Shown: positions 7,741 through 54,324 of the stretch, in pieces
Position numbering within the stretch: the first letter of the stretch is position 1
How the letters are laid out: each line of letters opens with the position of its first letter
DNA from: Termitomyces sp. T153
Lineage: Eukaryota > Basidiomycota > Agaricomycetes > Agaricales > Lyophyllaceae
Direction of reading: 5' to 3'
Assembly: GCA_018296165.2 (NCBI GenBank)
Contig: JACKQL020000189.1
Span: forward strand, 1-64,000
DNA: 64,000 bases
Notes under the pieces: model-generated
Database searches by the model: none
The model's input: only the letters and a program-made list of their open reading frames with translations
What the model was told of the DNA's origin: nothing
Position numbers and translations under genes: made by a program

Positions 7741-8611
7741 ATGTCTTCCTCTGTCTATTCCCCAGCAGCATTGTCCAAGTCATCCGCAGCATTCCCCGCC
7801 CCTTTGTCTTTGGGGGAGTCCAAGCCTCACTATGGTTGCAGATGGGTTGAGGCCATATATCAAAGCCATGAGCACAGGTCCACTTCTCTGTGCTCTGGAG
7901 TTGCTAATCAACCTTTACAGAATTGTCTGCAGCTGTGGCTGGCCCATTGGCAGCTCTATTTTGAGGCAGAGTTTTGGCAGGATCAATTTCAGTATTGGCA
8001 GCATGGTCCTTGAGGCCAAATTTTGGTCTAAGAGAGATTCAGGTTGTTCTGGAGGTACTGTGGGTTCCCCAATCAGAGGTGACTCCAGAGAAGTTTGCAG
8101 AGGCTATGGGATGAGCACAGGGTCCTCCAACCCTGAAGTGGTGTCAGGTGGAGGCTCCAGTGAGTATTCCACATTGTTGTGCTAAGTTCTGAGCTGATTC
8201 TATCCTATAGTGTGCCATTTGTGCTTGACACGGGAAGTATTGCAGTTTTGAGGAGCTGACTCAGGGGTTCCAGCAGAACACTTTAATATGCATCCCATGT
8301 TGCTTGAGGCACAAGAAGTGCCCAATTTTGCTGAGTTGGTGGGTAGCCTGCATGTCTAAGGAGATGTGGCATAAGTGGCTGTGCAGTTGCTCAAGGGGCA
8401 CAGGGGGAAGGTGTTGGGTCTAGGCTCTAGAGTGGAGGGCAGAGCAAGCACAGAGTGGCTTGTAATGAAGGTGGAGCCCCCACAAGGTAGGCAGAGGGAG
8501 GGAGCTCCCACAGTGCATGACAAGAGGAAATGGAGAGCATCCCCCTTGCCAGAGGCGGGGCCCAGTAAGCAGCCGCAGGGGGCAGAATCCATGATGGGCC
8601 CTCCTGGGCCA
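7741..8611 (+). pseudogene. Gyp-1 antisense gene, exon 1 and first part of exon 2
   Basis: The gene opens MSSSVYSPAA at 7741. Exon 1 runs to 8159 and ends in the family motif WCQVEAP. An intron 8160-8210 (GTGAGT...CTATAG, 51 bp) separates it from exon 2, which starts with the cysteine array: CX2C, then CX6C, a 15-residue spacer and CX2CX6C, all six cysteines kept, with one TGA stop inside. Exon 2 breaks at 8611 where Gyp-2 is inserted (TSD GGCCA) and resumes at 44980. The protein is predicted to be nuclear, with a zinc-binding region and a coiled coil. It points against gag-pol. Confidence 0.75.
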
Positions 8612-12601: not shown

Positions 12602-14565
12602 GCGTCTGCCTAGTAAGGACTCGCCAGTGTACTGAGCCCCCGTCGTCAGCGGAACCTGACAGTATTCTCCAGCAGCATCCCCATCCCCATCAGCACATAC
12701 CTTGACTTCTTTCTCAGAGGACTCTGAGGGTCAGCGAGACTATAGGCGGGTGCAGGCAATGCACCATAGTTGTAAGTACTGTCTCTTGCTTGTCATGGCC
12801 AGAGTGCTGAATAAGTCCCATCAGAGTTGTCAGCGGCAGTGGTGGGCCCCTCGGGGCCTTTGTTGGGGGAGGCTCCAGTGCAGTCGGTGGGGGAAGTGAT
12901 CCCTGCTTCTTGTTCCAGGCCTGGTATTGCCCCTAGGGTGGTCTGCTCCATCTCTATGGGGTTGAGAGTCATGCAGGCAGACATGATGCCAGAGTACTTT
13001 GCAGAGGCCATGGGGTAAGCAAGAGGTCCTCTGACATTAGAGTGGTGTCAGGTGGTAGCCCCAGTGAGTCATTGGCATGTCCCTTCCTTATCGAGCTAAC
13101 CCACATTTCTAGTGCACGTCCTGTACCCAGCAGAGTGAACAGTGCAAGTTTGAGGAGCCCGTGCTGGGAGTGTGGCGGCACACGTCAGTGTGTCTCCTAT
13201 ATTGCTTGTGGCATGAGAAGTGCTCTGTCACTCTGAGTTGGTGTGCTGCTTGCATTGCGGCGGAGCAGGGGTGGGACCATGAGTGGGTTGCTACGCAGTT
13301 GAAGGAGGGTCGGAGGAGTAGGGTCTCAGGGAGGGGTTCTGGGGTAGAGGGGGGAGTTGGCGTGGGGCAGCCCCCAATGAAGGTTGGGCCCCCACAGGGT
13401 GGGCGGAGGGAGGGGGCCCCCACAACATGCAACAAGGATAAATGGAGGGTGTCCCTCTTGCCAGAGGCGGGGCCTAGCAAGCAGGTGTGGGAGGAGTCAG
13501 CAATGGCAGGCCCTCTGGGTCCCACAGTGTATTCCCCGACTTCTGGGGCCTTGGTCAAGCAGTCTGTGGGAGGGTCATGGTCAGTTGCCAAGGCTTTCCT
13601 GTGGTGTCAGGTGGAGGAGTTGGAAAGGTTGTTGGCCACATGCAGGGAGGAAGTTTGTAGGGTGGGGGAGGAGAGGGACAGGCTTCAGAGGAAACTGGAT
13701 GAGGCTCGGAAGGAACAGGACTTGGCGCTTAGGGATAAGGGCATTGCCATGGGGACTGCCATGGAGTGACTGTCACAGCTTCAAGAGCTGTGAGTGCATA
13801 TGAGGCCATTGGAGGTGTGGGCAGAGGTGGCAGGGCAACGATTGGAGGGGTCAGGGATGTGGGGGACTCAGTGGGGGTCCAGTGCGGAGGTGACCTGAGC
13901 AATGGTGGAGAGGGCACAGTGGTGGGAAGAGTGGCTTGCCAACAAGGTGGCCTTGGGGTGGCAGGGAGTGCTCCATAAGTGCTCCCTTTGTCTCCTGTTT
14001 ACTACAAGCTGACATTTGATTCCACAGACTGGGCCAGGGAGCACCGCATCCTCCTTGACGGAGCATCAGCAGCACTGGGGTCCATCCACAATGGGTTGGC
14101 GAGGATGCCCAGGGATCTCCCGCCAGAGTTGGGGCAGGGGGTCATGCAGATGGGGCGTCTGCTGGCAGAACATCAGCAGAGGGCAACAGTGGACCCCAGA
14201 GCATGGTGGGAGGTGGCAATGGACATGGCAGAGCTGCTCCCAGGGCATCCTAAAGTTCTGGCAATGGTAGTAGCACAGCTGGAGGTGGATCTGGTGGGGA
14301 GGATAGCAGAGGTGGATTTGGAGGAGAAGGGGGAGTAGGGGTTTTCTGGATTCTGGTTTCTTGTTGCCCTGTACTCCCCTATTTCTGTATTTCTTTCTTG
14401 TAGCTTTTGTGAATATCGGACTTCTTGTACTCCTGCTGAGCATCAAGTTTTCAGAATGAGTGAGGGGCAGAGTAAGTGAAAACATGTAGGGGGGCTACTT
14501 GTGGGAGTTGAATCCCTGATAAATCCAGAGGCGGGGGTTATGCCCACTGATGCCATCTGCACTTG

Positions 14566-24100: not shown

Positions 24101-27100
24101 CCTGGGAGGGTAAGCTCAACATTCAGAAACCCAAACCCTTCACCGGCCACGACCCCTGGAAGTGGTGAATCTTTCTAACCCAGTGTCTGACTATGTTCCA
24201 AGCTAAGCCAATTACCTTCCAACTTGAGAGCTCACGAGTGGCCTTTGCCATGTCATATTTACAGGGTATCACCTTTGATCATTACACCATGCTACTCCAG
24301 TTTGACCCCAACAACCCCATGCTCTCCAATTGGCTTGCTTTCACCCAGGAATTCTCGAGTAAGTTTGGCATCTTTGACACCATAGCGGAGGTGGAGGAAA
24401 ATCTCTTCAACCTCCAAATGCATGACAATGAACGCTTCACAACCTTTATTGTATGGTTTGAACGGGAAGCCTACAAGACCAGCTGGAACTACAATGCTCT
24501 CCGATTTGCCCTCCGTCGCACTCTGCCTCAATGAATCAAGGAGGTCCTTCACCTCACACCCAAGCAAACCACCTACGATGGGTACAAGGCGCTCATTACC
24601 CAGGTCAACCAATGTTACTGGGAAGATTGCAGCAAAAACACGGCGCTCCGGATTCCCTGAAACACCTCTGGTAACACCAACTGGCAGGCCAGAGCAACCA
24701 ATGGCATTTGGTCCTCAATCCCCGCTAACCCCACGCCCCACTTTCCCTTGAGCTGAGGAATTACCAGCACCAACCCACCCCCAGAGCAACGTCTGCTGGC
24801 CCAGCTCAACGCTGCCAACCTCCATGAAACTCCGGGACCCCTGGACACCAACCCTGATGACCATGACAACATTCCAGACCCTGCCAACAATCAAGAAGCC
24901 TTATGCGCAAACCGGATTTTGGATAGCCCATGGATCGACGTGCTGGAGGAAATGCAGGAGAAATGATGGAAGGAGGGTGCATGCATCCTATGTAGTGAGC
25001 AGGGACACTTTATTCGCAGTTGTCCTAAACAACAGGTGATGGAACGCGCCGTGTGGACAATCAATGGAGAAGACTGTAACTACCAGTTTATGGAAAACGA
25101 GTCAGCGATTTAGGTCTTGAAGATGCACTAGACTGTGGACCAGATCCCAACATCTTCTCCATCCCAGCCACACTCCTCCGCACAACAATACTTGCTCCAG
25201 ACAGCCCCCCAGTACACCTACCCTCCCACTCATCCACCAACCTCCTCCTCTGCACCACTCTTCCCTTCACCAACAACCCCATCCCCACACTAGTTGACAG
25301 TGGCACCACTGACAACTTCATCAATGAATCCCTGGCAGCGCTCACTCCCCACTCCCTCCAATGCCTCTCTGCCCCGATCCCCCTCAAACTTTTTGATGGA
25401 GACCCCACCCCAGTGGGAGACATCACACACTGCCTGGAAACAACCAAGACCTTTGCCAACAGACAACAGCAAGAACTCTCACTACTTATTACAAAATGAC
25501 ACTCCTCCGCCCCCGTTGTCTTAGGATTCTCATGGCTCCATTCCACCAACCCCCACATTGACTGGCCCAGCCTCACCCTCCGCCTTGACTGGGACAACCC
25601 CACCAACTCTGGGCTGGTACCTTTTGATGTCTCACCCTCCTCCGAGAACTCTGAGACCACAATCAACCACCCCTGGACTCCTTCGCAGCTCCGCTCTAGA
25701 TCTGCATGGTCATTCATTGTCAATGTCTGACTCAACAACTCTTCCAAGGTATTCCCTGCCCTTGTCAACAGCGGTGCCTCCAGCACCTTTGTCAGTAATC
25801 AGCTTGGCCTCCAGCGCAATGACCTCGACAAACCCCTCAAGCTCCAACTCTTCAATGGAAGCCCCGCCACGACAAGGATCACTCAATACCACAACAACAC
25901 CCTCACCCTTGACAATGACCTGCAGTTTCAGGCCCGGCTCCTTGTCACCCAATTACCTCTGCCAACTCCAATCATGCTCAGACTCCCATGGCTGCAAGAC
26001 ATCAACCCCAACATCGACTGGAAGGACCTCACCATGCAATTCCCTGGCTCTGAAGCAAGTTTAGCAGCCACCATCCCCCTCCGCCTCCAGTCTATCCCAG
26101 ACCTTGACATCTCCCATCCTGGTGCCAGCACCTCCAGAGTGACCCAGAGTCCCTCAACCTCTGATGACAACCCCAACAAAGCAGGAGATGCCACTCTGCC
26201 TCCGTCACCCTCAATCACATTACAATGGCTGCCTCCCAACATACCCCAGAATTGATACAAAGGCCCATGGTACCCTGACCAGCGACGCTCAAGGTCCCTG
26301 ACCAACTCCGCCACCACTCTGGACTCATCCGCTACCACTCTCACATCCAACTCCAACAACCCCAGAAGCCTTGACATTAAAATTGTCAGCGCTGTTCCCT
26401 TTGCACGCCTTCTACAAGACACCACCCCCACCTTCCAGTTACAAATCACACCAGCCCTACCCAAGGAGCACCTCTGCACAGGGACCACCGTGCCAGAGAG
26501 CAAGATGGAGGAACAGATCCTATCTAAAGTAGTTCCCCTGGAGTATCATGAGTTTGCTGACATGTTCTCTGAAGGGAGTGCCAAAGAACTTCCTCTGCAC
26601 TGCTCCTATGACCACAAGATTGACCTCAAAGAAGGTACCTCACCCCCATTTGGCAAGATCTACAACATGTCCAAGGTTGAGCTCTGAGCCTTGAAGGAAT
26701 ACCTCGATGATATGCTCAGCAAGGGCTTTATACGCCCATTGATCTCCGCCGCCAGCACTCCAGTTCTGTTCACCAAGAAGAAGGACAGGTCCCTCTGACT
26801 CTGTGTGGATTATTGGGGACTCAACAAAGTCACCACAAAGAACTGGTATTCCCTCCCCTTGATTGGAGACCTCATTGATCGTCTCTGCAGTGCCAAGATT
26901 TACACAAAGATAGACCTCCACTCTGGCTACAACAACATCCAGATTGCTCTGGGACATGAATGGAAGACTGCTTTTTGCACCTGCTATGGCCTCTTTGAGT
27001 ACCTTGTAATGCCCTTTGGAATGACTAACTCCCCTGCCACTTTCCAGTACTTCATGAATGACATCTTCCATGACATGAATGACGTTTTCATTATTGTATA

Positions 27101-27368
27101 CCTGGATGACATCCTGATCTACTTGAATTTGCTGACAGAGCATCCAGAGCACGTCCGCCGCATTTTAGAACAACTCCAAGAGTACCACCTTCATGCTAAA
27201 CCCAAGAAATGCTCCTTCCACATGATGGAGGTCAAATATCTTGGAGTCGTTGTCACCCCCAACGGCTTGCACATGGACCCCACCAAGGTCAACACAGTAC
27301 TCAACTGGCCCCTGCTGTGGAACATCAAGGAGGTACAGTCATTCCTGGGGTTTGCTAACTTTTATCGC

Positions 27369-28355
27369 TGTCAGGTTCCGCTGACGATGGGGGCTCAGTA
27401 CACTGGCAAGTCCTTACTAGGCAGACACGATGTCCTGCACTTATAACCAGGCATCCAGAGTTGGAGCGGAGGTGGGGAAAGCTTGCAAGGGGGTCCCTAG
27501 GGAGAGCGGCCCGAGTGAGTCCTGAATGGTCCGGAGGAGTCTAAGACCGAAGGTACTGGTTGTTGACCCAGGGCGGGTGTCAGGGCTAGTTTGTGGGCGT
27601 GCAAATAGATTGTGGGGTAAGCGGAGGCTTCTTGGGTGATGGGGGCGGGGTCAGAGCTGGATTGGGGATTACCAGGGCTTGATGGGTTCCAGGGCCGAGC
27701 GGGTAGCGAGGTTCAGAGTTGTCATAAGAATGTTTGGGTCGTGGCACATGTGCGGAGTTTGTACTGATGTAGGGAACAAGGGGAACTTAGAAGAACAAAG
27801 GAAATATGTACAGTCAAGACAAGATGGAGACAAGACGAGACTGAGGAAAAAAGATAGATTCAAAACTTAAAAACAGAAACAGAGACGAGACGAGAGACGA
27901 AACATAGGAAACCGGTAAATGTAATATCAAGACTAAAGTTCGAGGAGTTATTCTACGACTTATATACCGACTACTGGGTACCTCGGAGGGCAGCGGATAT
28001 GGTGGTGGGGGTTGATGGAGCTGTGCGGAGTCGACAGGTGTCAGGTACAATCCAAGGTCGGGCCACGGCAGTATTCTGATGGGATCAGTTGGGGGCGCGG
28101 CTGCTCCGGGGACGTCGTGATACTCCGGGATGGGTTGGGTAAACTAGGGTAGGGGGTCGGGGACGTATGACGTGGCCAGGAACGGTGGGGGAAGGTTTCA
28201 GGGGGAGTGTTGATGGCTACGGAGAGGGAGTTGCCATCGGGGTTTGCCGGAGAAGCGTCGGAGTTATCCAGTGTGGGCGGGGTTCAGGGGAGTTAGACGG
28301 GAAATCGGGAGGGGTTGGGAGCAGTGTCTAGGGAGCTAGGGAGCGGGTCGTGACA
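27369..28355 (-). repeat. Gyp-4 3' LTR
   Basis: 987 bp, TGTCAGGTTCCGCTGACG to GGGTCGTGACA. Relative to the 5' LTR it keeps a ~16-bp segment next to the start motif (near 27905-27920). Confidence 0.93.
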
Positions 28356-28368
28356 TCACCCCCCCTTC
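28356..28368 (-). other. Gyp-4 polypurine tract
   Basis: On the minus strand GAAGGGGGGGTGA directly abuts the 3' LTR, where the primer for plus-strand DNA synthesis is expected. The tract is kept in Gyp-1 (7530), Gyp-2 (9569) and Gyp-3 (about 42202-42214). Confidence 0.8.
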
Positions 28369-28430
28369 AGCGTTGAGACCCTCGGGATGCGAGGAGCAAG
28401 TTGGGGCTCGGTAGGGCATGGGAATCAAAG

Positions 28431-28448
28431 TTGATCAATATTGATCAA
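28431..28448. promoter_or_regulatory. 18-bp perfect palindrome upstream of the antisense gene
   Basis: TTGATCAATATTGATCAA is a perfect inverted repeat about 120 bp before the antisense-gene ATG and about 75 bp inside the 3' LTR edge. The core AATATTGATCA is still visible at the same place in Gyp-1, Gyp-2 and Gyp-3, though one half has decayed. It could be an operator for a dimeric DNA-binding protein. That role is inference. Confidence 0.4.
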
Positions 28449-28522
28449 ACTGCAGCGAGCGGCGGCAGCATGGGGAAGGAAGTCAAGGTGCGGCCGCCAT
28501 TTGTCAGGGGCCCCTTCCTAAG

Positions 28523-28532
28523 TTATTAAAAG
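28523..28532 (+). promoter_or_regulatory. TATA-like box of the antisense gene
   Basis: TTATTAAAAG stands 37 bp before ATG 28569. The same A-rich motif occurs in Gyp-1 (TATTAAAAGGG) and as TCATTGAAAAGGG in Gyp-2, always just upstream of the antisense ATG. Confidence 0.45.
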
Positions 28533-28568
28533 GGGTGGATGCACCCGGGGGTCCCCCAGCTTGTTGTA

Positions 28569-30121
28569 ATGTCTTCTTCAGCTTATTCTCCCACAGCATC
28601 TAGGTCACCATCCCCGCCATCCCAGCCGCTGTCTTCGGCCATGGCTGGTCCCTCAGGGCCACCGTCTGGCGCGGATGCGATGCAGCCACCAGCGGGCATG
28701 GCCCCTTCTACGCGCTCCAAGTCTGGCATTCGTCAGGGGGTGGTCCGGCTTGTCCCAGAGGGTTCGAGGGTGGTACAGGCGGAGGTGACGCCAGAGCAGT
28801 TTGCCGAGGCGGTGGGTCGGGCGAGGGGTCCCCCCACCCTTGAGTGGTGTCAGGTGGCGGCCCCGGTGAGTGGCTACTTAGCTTCATGTTTCCCGGACCA
28901 ACATGCCCCTGCAGTGTGCGTCTTGTACCCGATGAGGGGAGCAGTGTGAATTTGAGGAACCTGCATCGGGGGTACGGCGGGACACATCGGTGTGCCTTCC
29001 ATGCTGTTTGCAGCACGAGAAGTGCTCTGTCACCCTGAGTTGGCGGGCCGTCTGCGTTGCGGCGGAGCAAGGGTGGGATTGAGGTTGGGTTGCAGCGCAG
29101 CTGGAGGAAGGGTGGAAGGGCAGGGTGTTGGGGAGGGGCTCCGGGGCTGGGGAAGGGGAACGGGTTAGCGCGCCTGTCATGAAGGTGGGCCCCCCGCGGG
29201 GTGGGCGGAGGGAGGGGGCCCCTTCCACGCAGGAGAAAGGGAAACGGAGAGTGTCCCCTTCACCCAAGGCGGGTCCCAGTAAGCGGGCGCGGGGCAAGCA
29301 GGTAATGGGGGGCCCCCCTGGTTCCGCGGTGTACTCCCCTACATCCAGAGCCCCCGTTGAGCAGTCTGCGGATAGGTCGTGGTCGGTTGCGGAGGCCTAT
29401 CTGCGGCGTCGGGTAGAGGGCTTGGAATGGTTGTTGGTCGCACGCAAGGAGGAGATTCAGGGGGTACGGGAGGAGAGGGACGGGGCTTGACGGGAGTTGG
29501 ACGGGGTTCGGAGGGAACAGGACTTGGTGCGGAAAGACAAGGACATCGCCATCGGGACTGCCGCGGAGCGATTGTCTCGTCTGCAGGAGTTGGAGGTGTG
29601 GACGGTGCATTTGCAGGCACGGGCGGAGGTGGCGACGCAGCAGGCAGGAGGCTCAGGGGTGCGGGAGACCCAGCAGGGTTCCAGCACTGGGGAAGTCCAG
29701 GCGGCGGCGGGAGGAATGGCTTGCCAACAAGGCGGCCTCGGGCCGGTGAGGAGTGCTTCGTGAGTGGTTTCCCTGCTTTCATCTCCTAAGCGCTGATTCA
29801 GGTTCCACAGACTGGGCCAGGGAGCATCGCATCCTTCTCGACAGAGCGTCGGCAGCGCTGGGGTCCATCCATGATGGGTTGGCGAGAATGCCCGGGGACC
29901 TTCCGCCGGAGTTGGGTCAAGGGGTTACGCAGATGGGGCGTCTGTTGGCAGGGCATCGGTGGAGGGCGACGGCAGATCCCGGGGCGTGGTGGGAGATGGC
30001 GACGGACGTGGGGGAACCGCTTCCCGGGCAACCCGAGGTTCTGGCGGCAGTAGTGGCACAGTTGGAGGTGTTCATGGTGGGAAGGGTAGCGGGGTTAGGG
30101 TCGGAGGAGGAGGGAGAGTGA
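28569..30121 (+). pseudogene. Gyp-4 antisense gene: Zn2Cys6-like, coiled-coil protein
   Basis: Three exons: 28569-28865, 28915-29759 and 29802-30121; introns 28866-28914 (GTGAGT...CTGCAG, 49 bp) and 29760-29801 (GTGAGT...CTGATTCAG, 42 bp). The product is about 487 aa: a Ser/Pro-rich N-terminus; from residue 100 a six-cysteine array at 100, 103, 110, 126, 129 and 136 (the spacing style of fungal Zn2Cys6 factors, with a longer middle loop); basic NLS-like clusters (KGKRR, SKRARGK); a coiled coil (about 29388-29590); and a C-terminal domain (DWAREHRILLDRAS, later PGAWWEMATDVGE). Lesions: TGA at 28933, 29076 and 29488, another near the end of exon 2, and one 1-nt frameshift there. All the TGAs fit CGA>TGA. 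It runs opposite to gag-pol and stops 229 bp from the pol stop. Function is unknown; a regulator of the element is a guess. Confidence 0.75.
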
Positions 30122-30350
30122 GGGGAACTCAGACCCCATTGTTGACTTGTTCTCTGCCCCTTCTTGTTCGAGTATATATATGTACACTGCTTGTTCCTAT
30201 ACAGTCTCTGGTCCTTCTGCTGAGTGTGGGAAGTTTCAGATAGAGCAAGGAGAGGAGTAAGTGGAAACACGTAGGAGAGTACTGGTGGGAGTTGAATCCC
30301 TGGTGAACCCAGAGGCGGGGGTTACACCCACTATTGCCATCTGTGTTGGG

Positions 30351-33300
30351 TCAGTCCCGGGGGTTCTGGGGCTTGGCAGGATTCCGTCGGTGGAAGTCCC
30401 GGAGTTTGTCGGGGGCTCTGTCGAGGTTCTTTTGGGGTTCCCATGTGTTGTCCTCAGGTCCGTAGCCTTTTCAGCGGACCAAGTACTGGAGTCGGCCACA
30501 AACTACCCGGGAGTCGAGGATCTCGTCGACCTCGTAGTGATACTCGTCCTCGACTTTGACGGGGGGCAGTCGGCTGGGGCGTTGGCTGGGGAAGGGGTCT
30601 GGAGCGTGCCTTTCAAGGAGTTGAATGTGGAACACAGGGTGGAGGCCCTTCAGGCCCGGAGGCAGGTCGAGCTTGTAAGCGTGGGTGGAGACCTTCCGGA
30701 GGATCTTGAATGGGCCGAGGCATTTGTGGTCGAGTTTGATGGAAGGCCTCCGGGTCTTAAGATTTCGTTGGTCGAGCCAGACCAGGGTGCCGGGGGGCCA
30801 GTCGGGGGTTGGCTTGCAACGGGCATTGGCGTGCTTGGAGTAGGCTTGGTTGGCGGTGTCGATCTCATCCTGGAGGAATTGGTGGAGGGATCGGAGGTCC
30901 TTGGCGACTTCGTGGGCAACGTGGGAAGGGATGTCTTTGAGGGACAGCGTGAGTCGAGGATTGTAGCCCTTGTTGGCGTAAAAGGGGGAAACTCCGGTGG
31001 CGGAGTGAGGCGTGTTGTTGTAGGTGAATTCAGCGAGGGGAAGCTCCGCACACCAGTCATTCTGTAAATAGTTAACATAGAGGCGAAGATACTGTTCTAA
31101 CGTCTGGTTTACGCGCTTGGTTTGTCCGTCAGTTTCCGGGTGGTAGGCGGTAGAGAGGCTGGTTTTGATCTCGAGCGCCTTGCACAGCGATTGCCAAAAA
31201 TGAGATACGAATAGGGGTCCACGGTTGGAGACGATGTCATTAGAAAGTCCGTGTTTGGAGAATACGTGTTCTAGAAATAGTTTGGCAAAATCCAGGGCGG
31301 TGTCAGTGGTGTGGCAGGGAATAAAGAGGGCTTGTTTAGTAAGGCAGCAGACGACGACGAGGATTGCGTCAAAACCTTCGGAGTCAGGGAGTTTGACGAT
31401 ATGATCCATCAATATTGAGGACCAGGGGCAGCGACCGACGGGGAGGGGTTTCAGTAATCCGTGGGGGCGATGGCGGGGTACTTTGGCCTGTAGGCAGGGT
31501 TTGCAGGCTCTTACATATTGCGTGACGTCCTTCTTCATTCCTGGCCAAAAATAAGTCCGGGAGATGAGTTGAAGGGTCTTACGAATTCCTGGGTGCCCCC
31601 AGAGTTTGTGATCGTGGTGCTGCCAGAGTATGTCGAGGCGAATGGACTTGTGGTCCAGGGCGTAGATTTGTCCACTCCGGAGCAGGAGGCGGTGGTCCGG
31701 GGATAGCGAAAAGGGGTTGTCTACACTTGACTCATCAGGGTTGTTGCGGGGGTTGTGCTGGTTGAAGAAGGGGTCTGGGGGTGAATTCCTGATTTGCTGG
31801 AGGATTCCTTCTTCGTTTAAAATCAGCACGGCATGTAGATGTTTGGGTGGGATTACCACTCAATGGTTGAATGCATTTTGTTCGGTTTTGAACGACCTCT
31901 TTGGATACACGTTGGGTCTCTGAGTGAGGGCGTCAGGCTTTGCGCCGAGTCGCCCAGGGTGGTAGTGAATAGTAAAATCGTACTCCAAAAGGGTTTTGGA
32001 CCATCAAGCCTGGCAGTGGCTGAGCTGTTTCGTGGTCGTGAAATATTGCAGGTTGTTGTGATTGGAGTAGACTTGGATGCGGTGCAGGGACCCCTCGAGG
32101 TAGGCCCGCCACTGACGAAAGGCTTCAACGATCGCGAGGAGTTCCTTGTTGTAAATGTCATAGTTGAGTTCCGCTGGGATCATTGATTGGGTGTAGAAGG
32201 CGACGGGGCGGAGATCCTTGCCCCCCGAGTTCGACTGGGAGAGTATCCCGGCGATAGCATAGTCGGAGGCGTCACATTCGAGCACAATCGGTAGGGAGGG
32301 GTCGAAATGGTGGAGGACTGGAGCGGAGGTGAAGGCCTTCTTCAGGAGGAGGAATACGCTCTGGCACTTGCTGTCCCAGTCCCAAGGGGTGTCCTTCCGT
32401 GTGAGTCGGTTGAGGGGTTTGGTGATCCCAGAGTAGTTGTCAATGAAGCGGCGATAGAAGTTAGCAAACCCCAAGAATGACTGTACCTCCTTGACGTTCT
32501 GTGGGGAGGGCCAGTTGAGTATCGCATCGACCTTGGTGGGGTCCATGCGCACACTGTCGGGGGTGACAATGACCCCGAGATATTCGACTTCCGCTGTGTG
32601 GAATGAGCACTTTTCGGGTTTAGCATGAAGGTGATACTCTCAGAGTCATTCCAGGACATGGCGGACGTGCTCCAAATGCTCCACCAGCGAATTCGAGTAG
32701 ATCAGGATATCGTCCAAATATACAATGACAAAGACGTTGTTCATGTCGTGGAAGATGTCGTTCATGAAGTACTGGAAGGTGGCGGGGGAGTTAGTCATTC
32801 CGAAGGGCATTACGAGATACTCAAAGAGGCCGTAGCGGGTGCAAAAGGCGGTCTTCCATTCATGTCCCGGGGCAATCCGGACGTTGTTGTAGCCGGAACG
32901 AAGGTCGATTTTTGTGTAAATCTTGGCGCTGCGAAGGCAATCAACAAGGTCTCCAATTAAGGGGAGGGGGTACCGGTTCTTTTTGGTGACCTTGTTGAGT
33001 CCCCAATAGTCCACACAGAGTCGGAGGGATCCGTCTTTTTTCTTGGCAAACAGAACCGGGGCGCCAGCCACAGAGATCGAGGGACGTATGAAACCTTTGC
33101 CGAGCATGTCGTCGAGGTATTCCTTCAGGGCCCGGAGCTCGATTTTGGACATGTTGTAGATCTTGCCAAACGGGGGTGAGGTACCTTCTTTGAGGTCGAT
33201 CTGGTGGTCGTAGGAGCAGTGCGGAGGGAGTTCCTTGGCACTTCCTTTAGAGAACACGTCAGCAAACTCATGATACTCCGGGGGAACTACTTCAGATAGG

Positions 33301-34535
33301 ATCTGTTCCTCCGTCTTGTTTTCTGGCGTGGTAGTCCCTGCGCGGAGGTATTCCTCGGGTAGGGCTGGCGTGACTTGCAACTGGAAGGCGGGGGTACCTT
33401 CTTGTAGGAGGCGCGCAAAGGGGACGGCGCCGATGATTTTAATGTCGAGGTTTCCGGAGTCGACGGGGTTGGGTACCGTAGGTGTAGCAGTCGGGTCCGG
33501 GGTGACGTCGAGATCAGGGATAGACTGGAAGCAGAGGTGGATGGCGGCCGCTAAGCTTGCTTCAGGGCCAGGGAATTGCATGGTGAGGTTCTTCCAGTTG
33601 ATGTCGGGATTGACGTCTCTCAGCCACGGGAGTCCGAGCACAATCGGGGTTGACGGGGGTAGTTGGGTAACAAGGAGTCAGGCCTGGAACTGCAGGTCGT
33701 TATCGAGGGTGAGGGTGTTGTTGTGGTACTGCGTGATTCTTGTCGTGGCAGGGCTCCCGTCGAAGAGTTGGAGCTCAAGGGGTTTGTCGAGATCGTTGCG
33801 TCGGAGGTCAAGTTGGTTGCTGACAAAGACACCGGAGGCACTGCTGTCTATGAGGGCGGGAAGTACCTTGAGCAAGCCGCCAAGTCGGACATAGATGACG
33901 AACGATCGTGCAGACCTAGAGCGAAGTTGCGGCGGGGTCCGGGGTTGGTTGATTGTGGTCTCGGAGTTCTCGGAGGGGGGTGAGACATTGAAGGGTACCA
34001 GTCCAGAGTCGGTGGGGTTGTCCTGGTCGAGGCGTAGGGTGAGACTGGGCCAATCGACGCGGGGATTGGTGGAGCGGAGCCATGAGAACCCTAAGACAAC
34101 GGGGGCAGAGGGGTGTAATTTTGTGACAAGTAGTCGGAGTTCTTGCTGTTGTCCGTCGGCAAAGGTCAGGGTCGTTTCTAGGCAATGAGTGATGTCTCCT
34201 GCTGGGGTAGAGTCTCCGTCAAAGAGTTTGAGGGGGATCGGGGCGGGGAGGCGGCAGAGGGGTTGTGGGGCGAGCGCCGCCAGGGATTTGTCAACGAAGT
34301 TATCGGTGGCGCCGCTGTCGACTAGTGTAGGGACGGGTTTGTCAGTGAAGGGGAGAGTGGTGCGGAGGAGGAGGTTTGTGGAGGAGTGGGAGGGGAGGTG
34401 TGCTGGGGGGTTATCCGGGGCGAGTATCATTGCGCGGAGGAGTGTGGCTGGGGCGGAGAAGATGTTGGGATATGGTCCATGGTCTAGTGCGTCTTCCAGA
34501 CCTAAACCGCCGACTTGTTTTCCGTGAACTGGTAG
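30351..34535 (-). pseudogene. Gyp-4 pol polyprotein
   Basis: The frame opens at 34535, overlapping the end of gag by 34 nt in the -1 frame, and ends at TGA 30351-30353. Domains: protease-like 1 (VPTLVDSGATDNFVDKSL, about 34310, ending VVLGFSWLRSTNP); protease-like 2 (LPALIDSSASGVFVSNQL, about 33850, ending IVLGLPWLRDVNP); RT (LPLIGDLVD, then VIVYLDDILIYSN, about 32710); RNase H (ECDASDYAIAGILSQ, about 32260); integrase with a CX2C zinc pair (ACKPCLQAK) and a core in which the second Asp is Asn (IVSNRGPLF, about 31230); and a chromodomain ([28 protein letters not shown] with TGA at the Trp, near 30470-30540). About six TGA codons interrupt it. The chromodomain would bind methylated histone H3 and steer integration to heterochromatin. 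Confidence 0.9.
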
Positions 34536-36986
34536 TTACAGTCCTCTCCGTCGATCGTCCACATGGTGCATCCCATCACCTGTCATTTAGGACAACTGCG
34601 AATAAAGTGTCCCTGCTCACCACATAGGATGCACGCGCCCTCCTTCTGTTGTTTCTCCTGCGTTTCCTCTGGCACGTCAATCCACGGGCTGTCCTGGATT
34701 CTGTTTGCACATAGGGCTTCTTGATCGTCGGCGGGGTCCAGGATGTCGTCGCGATTGTCGGGGTTGGTATCCAGGGGTACTGGGGTGTCATGGAGGTCGG
34801 CGGCGTTGAGCTGGGCAGGTGGGCGCTGCCCCGGGGGTCGGTTGGTGTTGGGGACTCCTCGGCCCAGAGGGAAGCGGGGTGCGGGGTTAGCAGGGTTAGC
34901 GGGGATTGAGGATCGGATGCCATTGGTTGCTCTGGCCTGCCAGTTGGTGTTACCAGAGGTGTTCCAAGAGGTCCAGGGCGCCGTGTTTTCGCTGCGGTCT
35001 TCCCAGTAACGTTGGTCTACCTGGGTAACGAGCGCCTTGTACCCATCGTAGGTGGTTTGTTTGGGCGCGAGGCAAAGGACGTCCTTGATCCATTGGGGTA
35101 GGGCACGACGGAGGGCAAACTGGAGGGCATTGTAATTCCAGCCGGTCTCATAGGCCTCTCATTTGAATCGTACAATGAAGGTCATGAAGCGTTCGTTGTT
35201 GCGCATTTGGAGGTTGAAGAGATTTTCCTCCGCCTCTGCTATGGTGTCAAAGATGCCAAACTTACTCGAGAACTCTTGGGTGAAAGCGAGCCAATTGGAG
35301 AGTACGGGATTGTTTGGGTCAAACCAGAGTAGCGCGGTGTAGTGGTCAAAGGCAATGCCCTGTAAGTATGATGCGGCAAAGGCTACTCGTGAGCTCTCAA
35401 GCTGAAAAGTGATGGGCTTAGCTTGGAACATAGTTAAACACTGGGTCAGGAAGATTCGCCACTTCTGAGGGTCGCGGCCGGTGAAGGGTTCGGGCTTCTG
35501 GATGTTGAGCTTACCCTCCCGGGCCAGTGCATTGCGGGTATTGTCCTGTGAATTTTGAGTTTGAGGTGGGGGTCCGGCGTTGTAGTAGTAGTAGTAGTGA
35601 TTTCCATTTCCGCGCTGGGGGGGAAAGTTGTCCATTGCCGGGCCCCATCCTCCCGGGGGTCTGCCATTGGGTGGTCCTCCACTGGGGTTTTGACCCACAC
35701 TACCTGGGGCGGGTCCTGGGGCCCATCAAGGGGGAGGGGGTCCTCCAGGGTTTGGGGGTCCGAAATAGTTGGCGTCGGTGGGGGGATTAGGCATCGGGGC
35801 GGGCGGGGGACGAGAGGAGTTGGCAGAAAAAGGGGGTCGGGGTGCCCTGGGGCCCATGGGCTGTTGCGGGGGAACTGGGGCATTGGGATGGGGCGGAGGG
35901 GCATTGCTACGAGGGGCGTGGAGATCGAAGTGGGGGGGTCAGTCTCGTTGAGGCCCGTTGCGTGGGGCGTGTTTGTTGGCGGGGTTGCCTGGCTTGTCGA
36001 TATAGGAGAGGGTCCTGTTGTCGTCGTTGACGCGTAGGGGCGGTTGTTGGGAACGGAGTTTGGGGGCGGCGGGTTGGTCCCAGGTTTGGAAGGCGCTGGG
36101 CACGGAGCTGGCCCGGGGCCGGGCGGAGAGAGCCAAGGTGTGGGTGGTGGGTTGGTCGAACAACCCCCCCGCGGGGTTGAGGTTCCTCAAGATGCTGGAG
36201 GCCGCGTTGAGTTCTTCCTGCTGATGGGGAACGGAAGATGGGGCTTCGTTTCGTGTCCCGACGGGTTCCTCGCGTTGCATGTGGAAGGAGCGGGCGGGAT
36301 CCAGAGGGTCTTCGAAGGGGCGGGGGTTCGGGCTAGTGTGGATTTCTTCGACCAAGGCGTGGAGCTCGTTCCGTAAGTTGTCGTCAATGCCCAGGGTGCC
36401 TTGCGTATTCTCCGGGAGGTTCCCTTGCAGGTAGCATTTGTGGAAGTCGAGGAGTCAATCCGCCCAGACCTCCAGAGTTGCGGAGGTGTCGGGGTAGCCT
36501 AGGTTGGTGAGGAGGGTGCAGGTACGCCTTGCGAATTCCACGGGGGACAGGCGGAGGAAGCAGAGGACTTTATCATGTTGCTGGGCATAGGCTTCGACCC
36601 TTTGCTGCCTAGGAGAAGGAGGGGTTTGAGCAGCAAATGGTGGGCGGGGGGGGGAATAGTTATCTGTGGCCTCCGGAGGGACTGGGGCTGCAGCGGAGAT
36701 TGGGGTAGGCGGGGTTGGGGGGTGCTGCGGAGTATCCTCCGGGGTTGATACGGGGGTTGTTGCCATCGGCGTGGAATGTGGGAGGGCGGCGCCAGCCCAA
36801 GGGTATTCCCTAGCTGATGGAGGGGGCATAGAATGCCTGGTTGGGGTCAGGGGTCCAGTGACGGGGCACATATTGGTCCGCAAAGGGACCCGGGTAGAAT
36901 GGGGCGTAGGAATTTTCCAGTAGGGGCCGGCCATAGGCGTTGGTTGGGTAACCGACAGGGTTGTATGCGGGGTTAAATGCAGACAT
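34502..36986 (-). pseudogene. Gyp-4 gag
   Basis: ATG at 36986 (MSAFNPAYNPVGYPTNAYGR) to TAG at 34502. Regions: a Pro/Tyr/Asn-rich N-terminus; a helical segment (AYAQQHDKVLCFLRLSPVEF, about 36590); an Asn/Gly/Pro linker with a five-Tyr run (about 35590); a capsid-like domain (35530-35160, SNWLAFTQEFSSKFGIFDT); a CCHC knuckle CILCGEQGHFIRSC at 34590-34632. A 26-nt deletion near 36700, relative to Gyp-5, shifts the frame. CAG>TAG (about 36810) and CGA>TGA (36455) add stops. The product would form the particle and package element RNA. Confidence 0.88.
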
Positions 36987-37005
36987 CAAGAACAGGGTAA
37001 GGGGG

Positions 37006-37016
37006 AGTCTTGATAT
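37006..37016 (-). other. Gyp-4 self-primer-binding site
   Basis: On the minus strand ATATCAAGACT lies two bases after the 5' LTR and pairs over all 11 positions with the predicted transcript start AGTCTTGATAT (minus strand of 37558-37568). Confidence 0.68.
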
Positions 37017-37018
37017 CA

Positions 37019-37981
37019 TGTCAGGTTCCGCTGACAACGGGGGCTCAGTACACTGGCGAGTCCTTACTAGGCAGACGCAATGTCCTGCACTTATAACCAG
37101 GCATCCAGAGTTGGAGCGGAGGTGGGGAAAGCTTGCAAGGGGGTCCCTAGGGAGAGCGGCCTGAGTGAGTCCTGAATGGTCTGGAGGAGTCTAAGACCGA
37201 AGGTACTGGTCGTTGACCCAGGGCGGGTGTCAGGGCTAGTTCGTGGGCGTGCAAATAGATTGTGGGGTAAGCGGAGGCTTCTTGGGTGATGGGGGCGGGG
37301 TCAGAGCTGGATTGGGGATTACCAGGGCTTGATGGGTTCCAGGGCCGAGCGGGTAGCGAGGTTTGGAGTTGTCGTAAGAATGTTCGGGTTGTGGTGCGTG
37401 CGCGGAGTTTGTACTGACGTAGGGAGCAAGGGAAACTTAGAGGAACAAAGGAAATATGTACAGTTGAGACGAGATGGAGACAAGACAAGACTGAGAAAAA
37501 AGATAGATTCAAAACTTAAAAACAGGAATAGAGATGAGACGAGAGATGAAACATGTAATATCAAGACTAAAGTTTGAGGAGTTATTCTACGACTTATATA
37601 CCGACTACTGGGTACCTCGGAGGGCAGCGGATATGGTGGTGGGGGTTGATGGAGCTGTGCGGAGTCAACAGGTGTCGGGTACAATCCAAGGTCGGGCCAT
37701 GGCGGTATTCTGATGGGATCAGTTGGGGGCGTGGCCGCTCCAGGGACGTTGTGATACTCCGGGATGGGTTGGGTAAACTAGGGTAGGGGGTCGGGGACAT
37801 ATGACGTGGCCAGGAACGGTGGGGGAAGGTTTCAGGGGGAGTGTTGATGGCTACGGAGAGGGAGTTGCCATCGGGGTTTGCTGGAGAAGCGTCGGAGTTA
37901 TCCAGTGTGGGCGGGGTTCAGGGGAGTTAGACGGGAAATCGGGAGGGGTTGGGAGCAGTGTTCAGGGAGCGGGTTGTGACA
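37019..37981 (-). repeat. Gyp-4 5' LTR
   Basis: 963 bp, TGTCA/TGACA ends, upstream of gag on the minus strand. U3 is about 413 bp (37981-37569) if transcription starts at 37568. It lacks the ~16-bp segment present in the 3' LTR. Confidence 0.93.
37558..37600 (-). promoter_or_regulatory. Gyp-4 LTR core promoter and predicted transcript start
   Basis: On the minus strand TATATAAG (37600-37593) precedes AGTCTTGATAT (37568-37558) by 32 nt. The same spacing occurs in the Gyp-3 and Gyp-5 LTRs, and the 11-mer is what the primer site pairs with. Confidence 0.62.
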
Positions 37982-40313: not shown

Positions 40314-42005
40314 CTACTCCCCCTCCCCCCCCAAACCCATCTCCACTATCCTTCCCACCAGATCCACCTCCAGCTGCGCTACTACCATTGCCAGAACTTT
40401 GGGATGTCCCAGGAGCGGCTCCACCATGTCTATTGCCACCTCCCACTATGCTCCGGGGTCCACCGTCGCCCTCCACCAATGTCCCACCAGCAGACGCCCC
40501 ATCTGCATGACCCCCTGCCCCAACTCCGGTGGGAGATCCCCGGGCATCCTTGCCAACCCGTTGTGGATGGACCCCAGTGCCGCTGATGCTCTGTCAAGGA
40601 GGATGCAATGCTCCCTGGCTCAGTCTGCAGAATTGAATGTCAGCTCGTAGTAAATGGAAGATGAAGGGAGCACTTATGGAGCACTCCCCACCACCCCGAG
40701 GCCACCTTGTTGGCAAGCCACTCTTCCCGCCACCGCGCCCTCTCTGCTATTGCTTGAGTCACCTCCACACTGGACCCCTGCTGAGTCCCCCACGTCCCCG
40801 ACACCTCCAATTGTTGCTCCACCACCTCTGCCCACACCTCCAATGGCCTCATGCATGCTCGCAGCTCTTGAAGCTGTGACAGTTGCTCTGTGGCAGTCCC
40901 CACAGCGATATCTTTATCTCTACGCACCAAGTCCCATTCCTTCCGAGCCTCATCCAGTTCCCTCCGAAGCCCGTCCCTCTCCTCCCCCACCCTATGGACT
41001 TCCTCCCCGCATATGGCCAACAACCTCTCCAACTCCTCTGCCCGATGCCACAAGAAAGCCTTGGCAACCAACCACAACCCTCTTGCAGACTGCTCAACCA
41101 AGGCCCCAGAAGTCAGGGAATACACCATAGGACCCAGAGGGCCTGCCATCGCCAGCTCCCCCCATGCCTGCTTGCTAGGCCCCACCTCCGGCGAGAGGGA
41201 CGCCCTCCGTTTACTCTTGTCATGCATTGCAGGGGCCCCCTCCCTCCACCCACCCCACAGGGGCCCAATCTTTATTGGGGGCCACCCCATGCCAACTCCC
41301 CCCTCTACCCCAGAACCCCTCCCTGAGACCCTACCCCTCCAACCCTCCTCCAACTGTGCTGCAACCCACTTGTGGTCCCACCCCTGCTCTGCTGCAATGC
41401 AAGCGGCACACCAATTCAGAGTGACAGAGCACTTCTTGTGCTGCAAGCAACACGGGAGACACACTGATGTGTCCCACCACACTCCTGGCACAGGCTCCTC
41501 AAACTTGCACTGTTCACCCTGCTAGGTACAGGATGCGCACTAGAAACGTGGGTTAGCTCAATAGGGAAGGAACATGCCAATGACACACTGGGGCCACCAC
41601 CTAACACCACTCCAATGTCAGGGGACCTCTTGCTCACCCTGTGGCCTCTGCAAAGTACTCCAGTGTCACATCTGCCTGTGCAACTCTCGACCCCATAGGG
41701 ATGGGGCAGACCACCCTGGGGACCATACCAGACCTGGAATGAGAAGCAAGGACCATTTCTTCCGCTGACTGCGCTGGAGCCTCCCCCGATGTAAGCCCTG
41801 AGGGACCCACCACTGCTGCTGACAACTCTGACAGGAATTATTCAAGCACTCCGGCCATGATGAGCAAGAGACAATACTTATGACTACAGTACATTGCCTG
41901 CACCTGCCTATGGTCTTGCCGACTCTCAGAGTCCTCTGAGGAAGAAGTTGAGGTATGTGCTGATGGGGAGGGGGATGCTGCTGGAGAATACATGGAAGAC
42001 AACAT
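40314..42005 (-). pseudogene. Gyp-3 antisense gene, three exons
   Basis: Minus strand: exon 1 from ATG 42005 (MLSSMYSPAASPSPSAHTST) to 41589; intron 41588-41540 (49 bp; donor GTGTGT, decayed from GTGAGT; acceptor TTTCTAG); exon 2 from 41539; a second intron 40677-40634 (donor ATAAGT); exon 3 to TAG 40314. Exon 2 keeps all six array cysteines (CASCT, QGEQCKFEEP, CLPCCLQHKKC), with one TAG inside. From the array on it is open for about 280 codons, through the basic linker, the coiled coil (EELERLLAICGEEVHRVGEE) and WLANKVASGW. It is the longest uninterrupted stretch of this gene in the window. It converges on the Gyp-3 pol stop at 40086. Confidence 0.78.
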
Positions 42006-44979: not shown

Positions 44980-45761
44980 CATGTATACTCCTCCAAATTG
45001 GGGGCCCTAGTAGGAGGGTCTGGCAGGGATCCCAGTCCTTCCTCCACTGTTCCCAAGATGTTTTGGCAGTGGTGGGCAGAGGCATTGTCCTGGCTGTTGC
45101 TAGGTGATTTGGAGGATTGAAGGGGATCGTAATGGGGTCCAGTAGGAGCATGACAAGGCACAGAGAGATTGGGACTTGGCATGGTGGAAGTTAGAGGGGG
45201 CTGTGTGGACAATTGCAGAGGGGTTGCTGGAGGTGCAGGAGTTGCAGAAACAGCTGGTGCAATTAGAGGCATGAGTGGAGCAGAGGGCAGAGGTGCAGCA
45301 AGGGGCTGCAGAGGTGGAGGGAGCCAGGGTGGAAGTAGGGAGGCAGTGCAAGAAGTGGTTAGCCAATGAGGTGGCCTCAGAGTGGAGGGGTGTAATGTGT
45401 GAGTTCCTCCACTTTTGCCCCTTTCACTCTACTGACACTGAGCTGTTTAGACTGGGTCTGTCAGCACTGCATCCTCCTTGATGGGGCATCAGCCATGCAT
45501 GCCTTGATACAAGATAGACTGGTGCAGATGCCTGAGGAGCTCCCATTGGAGTTGGAGCAGGGGTTCTGGCAGATGGGGTGGTTGTTGGCGGGGCATCAGT
45601 GGAGGAGTATGGCAGACTCCAGAGCATGGTGGGAGATAGCAACTGATGTGGGGGAGCCATTGCTAGGGCAGCTAGAGGTCTTTGCCATTGTGGTTGCACA
45701 GATGGAGGTGGACCTGGTTAGGGGTAGGGTGTGGAGAATTCTGGAGGAGGAGGGGGAGTGA
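44980..45761 (+). pseudogene. Gyp-1 antisense gene, rest of exon 2 and exon 3
   Basis: It continues exon 2 from 8611. The coiled-coil part is decayed; the WLANEVASEW motif (about 45355-45390) precedes an intron 45399-45442 (GTGAGT...CACTGAG, 44 bp) at the same position as in Gyp-4. Exon 3 has the C-terminal domain (HCILLDGASAMHALIQDRL) and ends at TGA 45759-45761, facing the pol stop at 45985. There are one or more frameshifts and stops. Confidence 0.72.
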
Positions 45762-53481: not shown

Positions 53482-54324
53482 AACAAGTTTGTAGGCATAC
53501 AAATAGACTGTGGGGCAAGTGGAGGCTTTGCTAGTAATGGGGGCTGAGCCAGAGCTTGACAGGGGATCAATTAAGACTTGATGGGTCCTGGGGCTGAGTG
53601 AAGAGCAAGGTCCAGAGTTGTTGTAGGAATGTTTGGGGTTTGTAGCATGGGCATGGAGTTTGTACTGACATCAGAGATGGAAGGAATTTAGAGAAACAAA
53701 GAAAATAGAGACAATTGAGATGAGATGGAGACAAGGCAAAATGAGACAGAGAAAGGAATAGATTCAAGACTAAAAATAGAAACAGAGACAGAAAGAAACA
53801 CAAGACACAAGTGACCAGTTAATGCAATATCAAGACTAGAGTACAAGGAGTTACTTTACAACTTATATACTGACTACTGGATAGCTCTGGAGGGTAGTGG
53901 GTATGGTGGTAGGGCTTGGTGGAGCTGCATGGAGTCAATGGGTGTCGGGTACAATCAAGGGGTGGGCCACAGTGATATTCTGATGGGATCAGCTGGGGAC
54001 ATGGTTTGCTCCAAGATTGTTATGATGCTCCAGAGCAGTTTGGGTGAACTAGGGCAGTGGGTCAGAGGCATATGATGGGGCCAGGAATGGTGGGGGAGGG
54101 TTCCAGGGGCTCAGGGGGTCAAGGGAAGCATTGACAGCTGCAGAGAAGGTTGTTGGAGTTAGCCAGGGGGCCATTGGGGTTTGCCAGAAAAGCATCAGAG
54201 TTGCCTAGGGTGGCCATGGATGGTGTTCAATAGTTGGGGGTTTTGACAAGGCATTGGGGGAGGGACTCTGGAGAAGCAAGCAGGGTGGGAACAATGTCAG
54301 GGGTCCAGGGAGTAGGTCATGACA
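53482..54324 (-). repeat. Gyp-1 5' LTR remnant
   Basis: LTR sequence from about position 211 to its TGACA end at 54324. ATATCAAGACTAGAG (start motif, minus) is at about 53827. No TSD matches the left end of Gyp-1. Confidence 0.82.

What the first reader, a model, noticed from the sequence alone, without database searches (positions are those of the whole stretch)
28569..30121. A spliced, oppositely oriented Zn2Cys6-like gene carried by a fungal Ty3/gypsy family
Between pol and the 3' LTR, on the strand opposite to gag-pol, four separate elements (Gyp-1, -2, -3, -4) carry the same gene with two introns at the same positions (first intron 51, 49, 49 and 49 bp). Exons are conserved while intron sequence differs, and the six-cysteine spacing CX2CX6CX15CX2CX6C is complete in three copies and has one loss in the fourth. 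Basic clusters, a coiled coil and a conserved C-terminal domain follow. The copies differ mainly by CpG transitions, which suggests the gene was intact in the source elements. Plant Tat-lineage elements such as maize Grande are known to carry reverse ORFs near the 3' LTR; an intron-bearing zinc-cluster protein in a fungal chromovirus would be a different case. A role as regulator of the element, for example LTR repression or antisense control, is inference.
Basis: partly seen in the sequence, partly recalled or inferred. Interest (0 to 1): 0.9.

Follow-up and report, generated by a model that had tools for sequence, protein, structure and literature searches.

The report
Backward intron-bearing regulator gene in retrotransposon
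In what is likely a termite-farmed mushroom, a retrotransposon carries on its reverse strand a gene with three predicted introns whose protein sequence shows selective constraint, and which likely makes a DNA-binding protein that would control the element itself.

Summary
The window copy (28569-30121, antisense to its own gag-pol) is a decayed member of a gene family found in at least three gypsy subfamilies of a Termitomyces-like genome. Aligned copies show three introns, not two: the window copy lost 117 bp containing intron 1. In 57 of 58 fetched loci the gene lies opposite pol, 340-352 bp from it. Between subfamilies A and B, transversions at non-degenerate sites run at 0.20 of those at fourfold sites (95% 0.13-0.28), and only the gene frame is ever open in exon 3. 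Of 27 young copies (at least 97% identical), all span the same 1,696 bp, introns included, and 26 show no stop in the matched part of exons 3-4. A public Termitomyces gene model gives the same 514-aa spliced protein. The six-cysteine motif resembles a fungal zinc cluster, but with a 15-residue linker, seemingly swapped halves and a score below Pfam's cut-off. Antisense genes beside the 3' LTR are known in plants and in Botrytis Boty (brtn); a multi-intron, zinc-cluster-like one is a new variant as far as my searches show. Control of the element is inferred: no transcript or binding data were available.

The parts
27364..27368 (.). left target-site duplication (ATCGC)
   Evidence: right copy 37982-37986 reads ATTGC, one CpG-type change
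27369..28355 (-). 3' LTR of the element (987 bp), upstream of the antisense gene
   Evidence: 95.4% identical to the 5' LTR, 44 transitions, 0 transversions
28356..28568 (+). polypurine tract and leader between 3' LTR and the antisense ATG; presumed promoter region (inference)
   Evidence: A-B transversion rate 0.05-0.08 in three of four 50-bp stretches, 0.125 in the one next to the ATG
28431..28448 (.). 18-bp perfect palindrome TTGATCAATATTGATCAA, candidate operator (inference)
   Evidence: exact in 25 of 26 A upstream regions; in B exact in 1 of 24, 2-4 mismatches in 19, 6-7 in 4
28569..28865 (+). exon 1 remnant joined to exon 2 by a 117-bp deletion that removed intron 1
28866..28914 (+). 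intron 2 (49 nt, GTGAGT...CTGCAG); not a multiple of 3
28915..29759 (+). exon 3 (zinc-cluster-like motif, basic nuclear-signal-like stretch, long helix); decayed, with stops and a 17-bp deletion
28915..29025 (+). CX2CX6CX15CX2CX6C motif at the very start of exon 3
29760..29810 (+). intron 3 (51 nt, GTGAGT...CCACAG)
29811..30121 (+). exon 4 (WAREHRILLDG...), lowest raw A-B divergence of the four exons
   Evidence: its fourfold sites are also little diverged
30471..33677 (-). pol of the same element: reverse transcriptase, integrase, SH3-like domain, truncated chromodomain
33678..36985 (-). aspartic protease and gag region of the same element (decayed)
37019..37981 (-). 5' LTR of the element
40316..41824 (-). 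family-B copy of the gene, antisense to the + strand pol beside it
12828..14336 (+). another family-B copy; its pol (- strand) has a chromodomain at 14602-15033
7741..8607 (+). third-subfamily (D) copy, 5' half, cut by an inserted LTR
45145..45761 (+). 3' half of a further diverged copy (63% to the window copy), probably subfamily D

Best explanation
The feature is a protein-coding gene, with three predicted introns, carried antisense between pol and the 3' LTR by fungal Ty3/gypsy elements, and its product is likely a nuclear DNA-binding protein that would regulate transcription of the element that encodes it. Shown: its position and orientation, three conserved introns bounded by GT and AG where not decayed, amino-acid constraint, open frames in recent copies, conserved cysteines, and relatives in proteins named for five Termitomyces strains. 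Inferred: an antisense transcript starts in the short leader beside the 3' LTR, is spliced and translated; the protein enters the nucleus by its conserved basic stretch, dimerises by its long helix, and uses the two-zinc motif to bind element DNA (candidate target: the leader and U3 end), so tuning sense transcription, as I recall HBZ doing in HTLV-1. The introns survive retrotransposition because the sense genomic RNA carries them as reverse complement, which a spliceosome would not recognise (inference from established splicing polarity).
For: Gene opposite pol in 57 of 58 loci, 340-352 bp away; the remaining locus has no pol match. A vs B, transversions only (unaffected by CpG decay): 0.041 at 0-fold and 0.207 at 4-fold sites, ratio 0.198 (0.133-0.284), introns together 0.203 (26 A and 24 B copies); integrase control 0.068 (0.025-0.149) (27 A and 27 B). 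Per exon the ratio is 0.24, 0.23, 0.16, 0.38; the other two + frames give 1.98 and 2.07, the - frames 1.73, 0.35 (its third positions coincide with the gene's) and 2.85. Intron 2 is 49 nt in 57 of 58 copies (50 in L057) and so cannot be read through in frame; B introns 2 and 3, if kept, would give a stop in 30 of 30 copies. 40 of 40 scored places have spans of exactly 1,696 bp, 27 at 97% or more identity, 26 of those without a stop in the matched part of exons 3-4. L059, one young copy, reads 514 aa with GT-AG at all three introns. P0001, Termitomyces sp. J132, a separate annotation, aligns without gaps, 460 of 514 identical. A basic stretch holds 10 of the 11 invariant or nearly invariant columns of A1 (partial gene models favour this region). 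Helix 273-368, pLDDT 76-91 over 281-360.
Against: No RNA data: splicing and expression are predictions. Pfam Zn_clus is below cut-off or absent in all proteins scanned, and six pieces of four relatives gave no match. The AlphaFold models are poor (mean pLDDT 48 and 56) and the fold search found nothing significant (0 of 113 at E up to 0.001). In family A, introns 1 and 3 are multiples of 3 and mostly free of stops, so retention is possible there, and four of 28 public models in A1 keep intron 1. The ratio in exon 4 is only 0.38 on few sites. DNA binding, target and direction of regulation are untested. The TATA-like leader sequence differs between A and B, and the low divergence of the leader may reflect recombination between families rather than selection.
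Confidence: 0.5

Rival explanations
1. The protein is an accessory factor of the retrotransposition cycle itself (nuclear import, chromatin or integration targeting, packaging), not a transcription regulator.
For: Linked to pol in 57 of 58 loci; nuclear-signal-like basic stretch, long helix and conserved C-terminal region. PMC7264820 (passages read) discusses such roles for plant antisense ORFs.
Against: Made from a separate antisense gene, not from the genomic RNA; the zinc-cluster-like motif points to DNA binding. Neither excludes it.
Confidence: 0.25
2. It is an anti-silencing factor that counters host defence (CpG methylation or small RNAs) against the element.
For: Copies decay mainly at CpG (31 of 44 LTR differences), which suggests host methylation and a reason for a counter-factor; relatives are strongly diverged (P0099 of strain T159_Od127 is 43% identical to the query; T32_za158 proteins P0153 and P0154 are 35-36% identical to P0099).
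Against: No domain match to any such factor.
Confidence: 0.13
3. Only the antisense RNA matters (double-stranded RNA control); the protein is incidental.
For: Antisense transcripts can silence retrotransposons (discussed in PMC7264820, passages read).
Against: Non-degenerate sites evolve at a fifth of the fourfold rate, and fourfold sites match introns on average: selection acts on amino acids.
Confidence: 0.04
4. The frame is a shadow of a conserved sense-strand feature, or a chance open frame.
For: One - frame also has a ratio below 1 (0.35).
Against: That - frame shares third positions with the gene and, like every other alternative frame, is never open in exon 3 (0 of 58); the separate 514-aa annotation fits.
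Confidence: 0.01
5. A passively captured host gene that rides along without benefit to the element.
For: An intron-bearing gene could come from transduction in antisense; the source gene is unknown.
Against: Shared by three diverged subfamilies and kept open in young copies; purifying selection between subfamilies.
Confidence: 0.07

Closest known systems
brtn, antisense gene of Boty-like Ty3/gypsy elements of Botrytis cinerea (Zhao et al. 2011, Virology; original not read, seen as cited or described in passages of PMC7264820, PMC8365987, PMC4227169)
   Same: A fungal gypsy element with chromodomain; additional antisense gene, between pol and 3' LTR
   Different: Ascomycete host; the passages I read mention no zinc-cluster-like motif and no introns for brtn; sequence relation not tested
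Antisense ORFs of plant Grande, RIRE2, Retand (TRP28 domain) and PvRetro13 (PMC7264820, PMC11963269, passages read)
   Same: Same position and orientation, shared across families, proposed nuclear or DNA-binding regulators
   Different: Plant elements with other domains (TRP28, SMC); the terms 'intron' and 'zinc' occur 0 times in both papers
HBZ of HTLV-1 (PMC3185765, PMC6237760: beginnings of abstracts in a search listing only; its repressor role is recalled)
   Same: Antisense gene read from the 3' LTR, with spliced mRNA, coding for a DNA-associated leucine-zipper protein
   Different: bZIP, not zinc cluster; vertebrate retrovirus; an analogy of function, not homology
Fungal Zn(2)-Cys(6) cluster, Pfam PF00172
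   Same: Two CX2CX6C half-sites with basic residues
   Different: 15-residue linker, halves in swapped order against the profile, score below cut-off

Membership tests
Fungal Zn(2)-Cys(6) cluster (PF00172) | six cysteines in two CX2CX6C half-sites | tested here: met
   five Cys invariant and one nearly so in the 17 rows of A3; pattern in 42 of 120 relatives
Fungal Zn(2)-Cys(6) cluster (PF00172) | linker of about 5-12 residues between the halves (recalled) | tested here: not met
   15 residues in all 42 matches
Fungal Zn(2)-Cys(6) cluster (PF00172) | Pfam gathering score 21 | tested here: not met
   best 19.2 bits; others lower or no match
Fungal Zn(2)-Cys(6) cluster (PF00172) | basic half first, second half after the linker | tested here: not met
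   in the five proteins with a match (L045, P0001, P0005, P0099, P0154) and three pieces of L045, the first triad meets profile 13-35 or part of it and the second triad 2-15; scores are weak
Fungal Zn(2)-Cys(6) cluster (PF00172) | binds two zinc ions and CGG-type DNA (recalled) | not testable with these tools
   needs purified protein
[quoted passage not shown]
   57 of 58 loci opposite pol; LTR beside the gene in the window element
Antisense additional ORF between pol and 3' LTR | present in most copies of the family | not tested
   loci were fetched with the gene as query, so elements lacking it were not sampled
Chromovirus (chromodomain Ty3/gypsy) | chromodomain at the C-terminus of integrase | tested here: met
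   window 14602-15033, beside a family-B copy, 48 bits against cut-off 25.1; in the target element itself truncated by a stop, 11.9 bits
BRTN of Boty | sequence homology to BRTN | not tested
   no BRTN sequence at hand
HBZ-like antisense regulator | spliced antisense mRNA from the 3' LTR region | not testable with these tools
   three introns predicted from comparison only

The most novel reading that the evidence does not exclude
Gypsy chromoviruses of a termite-farmed mushroom encode their own antisense, triply spliced transcription factor with a permuted two-zinc cluster that binds a palindromic operator beside the 3' LTR: an HBZ-like self-control circuit that arose independently in fungi, with introns protected from loss by antisense orientation.
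Probability: 0.3. Interest if true: 0.9.

Novelty: new variant of a known kind. Interest (0 to 1): 0.74.

Why it matters
Retroelements would be expected to lose introns. Here three predicted introns persist through recent copies, probably because the gene runs against the genomic RNA, a natural counterpart of antisense-intron retrotransposition reporters (recalled). Multi-copy, young, intact loci in a genus with several sequenced strains make the open question of what antisense LTR-retrotransposon genes do directly testable. The half-swapped zinc-cluster motif is of interest in itself, and the 159 proteins listed in my three searches under names of the 'hypothetical protein' kind are likely this gene or pieces of it.

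Tried and rejected
Full-length structure from alignment A2: mean pLDDT 48, only the long helix is usable. Zinc-region piece: pLDDT 56; its PDB fold search gave mostly homeodomain matches among the rows listed, none with E up to 0.001, and is not used. No relative in the PDB by sequence. Three protein searches (120 of 142, 120 of 129 and 40 of 40 hits listed): every listed hit is named Termitomyces, but only about 8,000 candidates were scored each time, so absence elsewhere is not shown. The 17-bp exon-3 deletion looked like evidence that the gene is dispensable; on the tree the label is scattered (6 changes for 6 rows, as in shuffles; one of the six, L051, has a 14-nt loss), so no conclusion. 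Per-exon fourfold rates fall from 0.446 (exon 1) to 0.043 (exon 4), so a single neutral rate for the whole element is wrong; ratios are therefore also given per exon. My first impression that exon 4 is the most constrained part was dropped: its ratio (0.38) is the highest, exon 3 (0.16) the lowest. Rows dropped: L001 and L055 (A) and L012, L015, L019, L024, L028, L029 (B) from rates (26 of 28 A and 24 of 30 B); one search used 27 A and 27 B; one search used 50 of 58 loci; one search used 150 of the 624 A-B pairs.

Full report
What is there. The window is a nest of LTR elements in a 72.4-Mb genome (G000, contig C189). The target element runs on the - strand from 27369 to 37981, with LTRs of 987 and 963 bp, 95.4% identical, differing by 44 transitions (31 CpG-type) and no transversion, and flanked by 5-mers ATCGC/ATTGC. 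It holds gag, protease, reverse transcriptase, integrase and a truncated chromodomain on the - strand. Between pol and the 3' LTR, on the + strand, lies the gene of the finding, 28569-30121. Copies at 12828-14336, 41824-40316 and 45145-45761 also lie opposite the pol beside them; the copy at 7741-8607 is cut by an inserted LTR. A chromodomain above cut-off is present beside the copy at 12828-14336.

Family and gene model. I fetched 28 copies of the same subfamily (A, found with the window copy) and 30 of a second one (B, about 70% identical in DNA to the window copy); a third, more diverged subfamily (D) is listed. Alignment shows four exons (124, 239, 871, 311 nt in intact A copies) and three introns (51/49/51 nt in A, 54/49/53 in B, as the usual lengths). 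Among introns of 41-59 nt, introns 1-3 end in AG in 26/26, 28/28, 28/28 (A) and 27/28, 29/30, 28/30 (B) copies; they start with GT in 19/26, 27/28, 21/28 (A) and 16/28, 28/30, 13/30 (B). Of the 43 failures at introns 1 and 3, 41 read AT: the exon before them ends in C, so the donor G is in a CpG and decays with the rest.

It is coding. Because CpG decay inflates transitions, I counted transversions only. Between A and B, 0-fold sites differ at 0.041, 4-fold at 0.207 and introns together at 0.203 per site; ratio 0.198 (95% by codon bootstrap 0.133-0.284). The same count on the integrase end of pol in the same loci gives 0.068 (0.025-0.149). Within subfamilies, where most differences are post-insertion decay, ratios are 0.28 and 0.52 with wide intervals. 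Per exon the A-B ratio is 0.24, 0.23, 0.16 and 0.38. Reading the exons in the two other + frames gives 1.98 and 2.07, and the three - frames 1.73, 0.35 and 2.85; the 0.35 frame shares third positions with the gene, as a shadow should. In exon 3 the gene frame is free of stops in 9 of 28 A and 2 of 30 B copies, every other frame in 0 of 58. Over the whole model, 7 of 58 copies (6 A, 1 B) are open from ATG to stop, one of them with an internal deletion; 3 of the 7 also keep GT-AG at all introns.

It is alive, or was very recently. A search with one copy from a younger group lists 40 places, all spanning exactly 1,696 bp; 27 are at least 97% identical and 21 at least 99%. In 26 of these 27 the matched part of the exon 3-4 frame has no stop; the other has two TAG. 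Not every match covers the whole stretch: the C8 copy appears in two pieces and the C35 copy stops short. Counts are lower bounds, since only 40 of 489 candidates were scored. The one copy read gives 514 aa with GT-AG at all three introns. Flanks of 61-300 bp beyond the LTR were compared for 36 of 58 loci; only one pair shared flanking DNA (L012 and L036), so these are mostly separate insertions. Two pairs that are nearly identical on the tree (L004/L006, L008/L043) were not among the 36 and may be one place each.

Host and relatives. The best public match is J132_02857 of Termitomyces sp. J132, 514 aa, aligning without a gap to the spliced model of copy L045 (460 of 514 identical): a separate annotation with the same splicing outcome. 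Every hit listed in three searches is named Termitomyces (strains J132, T112, Mn162, T159_Od127, T32_za158); the genus is in Lyophyllaceae, Agaricales. P0099 of T159_Od127 is 43% identical to the query; T32_za158 proteins P0153 and P0154 are 35-36% identical to P0099. They keep the cysteine spacing, except that P0154 has lost one Cys.

The protein. The serine/proline-rich N-terminus differs most between A and B. Exon 3 starts with CX2CX6CX15CX2CX6C, followed by a conserved W and a seventh C, then a basic stretch of the form GKRRASP..EAGPSKR.RG that holds 10 of the 11 invariant or nearly invariant columns of A1 (partial models favour this region), a long helix (273-368, pLDDT 76-91 over 281-360), and a C-terminal region shared by distant relatives. 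Exon 4 has the lowest raw transversion rate, 0.032, but its fourfold rate is low too, 0.043. Pfam Zn_clus scores 19.2 bits against a cut-off of 21. In each of the five proteins with a match, and in three pieces of one of them, the first triad aligns with the second half of the profile (13-35, 13-33, 13-29, 20-35) and the second triad with its first half (2-14, 2-14, 2-15). The halves therefore look swapped. The matches are weak; six of ten proteins and the six pieces of four relatives gave none, so I treat this as suggestive. It works like a zinc cluster if at all; I do not file it as a member.

How it likely works. Established splicing polarity gives the reason why introns persist: in the genomic RNA of the element they are reverse complement and invisible to the spliceosome; only an antisense transcript would be spliced. 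All 40 places keep the full length. The 213 bp between 3' LTR and ATG hold the polypurine tract, a TATA-like TTATTAAAA in the window copy (B copies read TCATTGAAAA or similar) and, in A, an 18-bp perfect palindrome (exact in 25 of 26 upstream regions). Three of four 50-bp stretches of the leader differ between A and B by 0.05-0.08 transversions per site, against 0.27 and 0.23 in introns 1 and 2 and 0.11 in intron 3. The right half of the palindrome is kept in nearly all B copies shown and in D; the left half is not. I propose that this leader drives the antisense gene and is where its product acts, adjusting sense transcription, by analogy with HBZ of HTLV-1 (abstract beginnings; its regulatory role recalled). 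Expression, zinc, DNA binding, target and sign of regulation are all untested. Because fourfold rates differ strongly along the element (exon 4 0.043, pol 0.083, exon 1 0.446), A and B look like recombinants, and the low rate in the leader could come from that.

What is known. [quoted passage not shown] Zhao et al. 2011 not read). None of the passages describes multiple introns or a zinc-cluster-like motif. My library searches for such a gene listed no paper that by title or abstract beginning reports it in Termitomyces or any basidiomycete; several lists were capped (20 of 3,175, 20 of 96, 8 of 86), and the library lacks most subscription journals. Hence: a new variant of a known kind.

Noticed in passing
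window 28356-28568: Little-diverged leader with an 18-bp palindrome at 28431-28448; right half shared by A, B and D, cause (selection or recombination) open.
   Followed up: partly
window 28569-31500 and L001-L058: Fourfold transversion rate between A and B falls from 0.446 in exon 1 to 0.043 in exon 4 and is 0.083 in integrase: mosaic or recombinant element lineages.
   Followed up: partly
L001-L058, introns 1 and 3: Splice donors GT have become AT in many old copies (41 of 43 failures) because exon-final C makes the donor G part of a CpG.
   Followed up: yes
L001, L002, L003, L039, L040 exon 3: A 17-bp deletion at a GGCGGCGG repeat recurs in copies that are scattered on the tree (L051 has a 14-nt loss).
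   Followed up: partly
P0003, P0074: Public Termitomyces gene models run on from this gene into what looks like the antisense of pol, so they are likely mis-annotated fusions.
   Followed up: no
window 54234-57018: A copia-type element (GAG-pre-integrase, rve, retroviral SH3; for 54234-55790) lies at the right side of the nest.
   Followed up: no
window 27369-37981: The target element is inserted in the reverse transcriptase region of another gypsy element of opposite orientation (24101-27368, resuming at 37982), beside which a copy of the gene lies at 41824-40316.
   Followed up: partly
G000 contigs C10, C109, C112, C181, C241, C289: Several gene copies start about 1.2 kb from a contig end, so the assembly probably breaks at these LTRs.
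   Followed up: no
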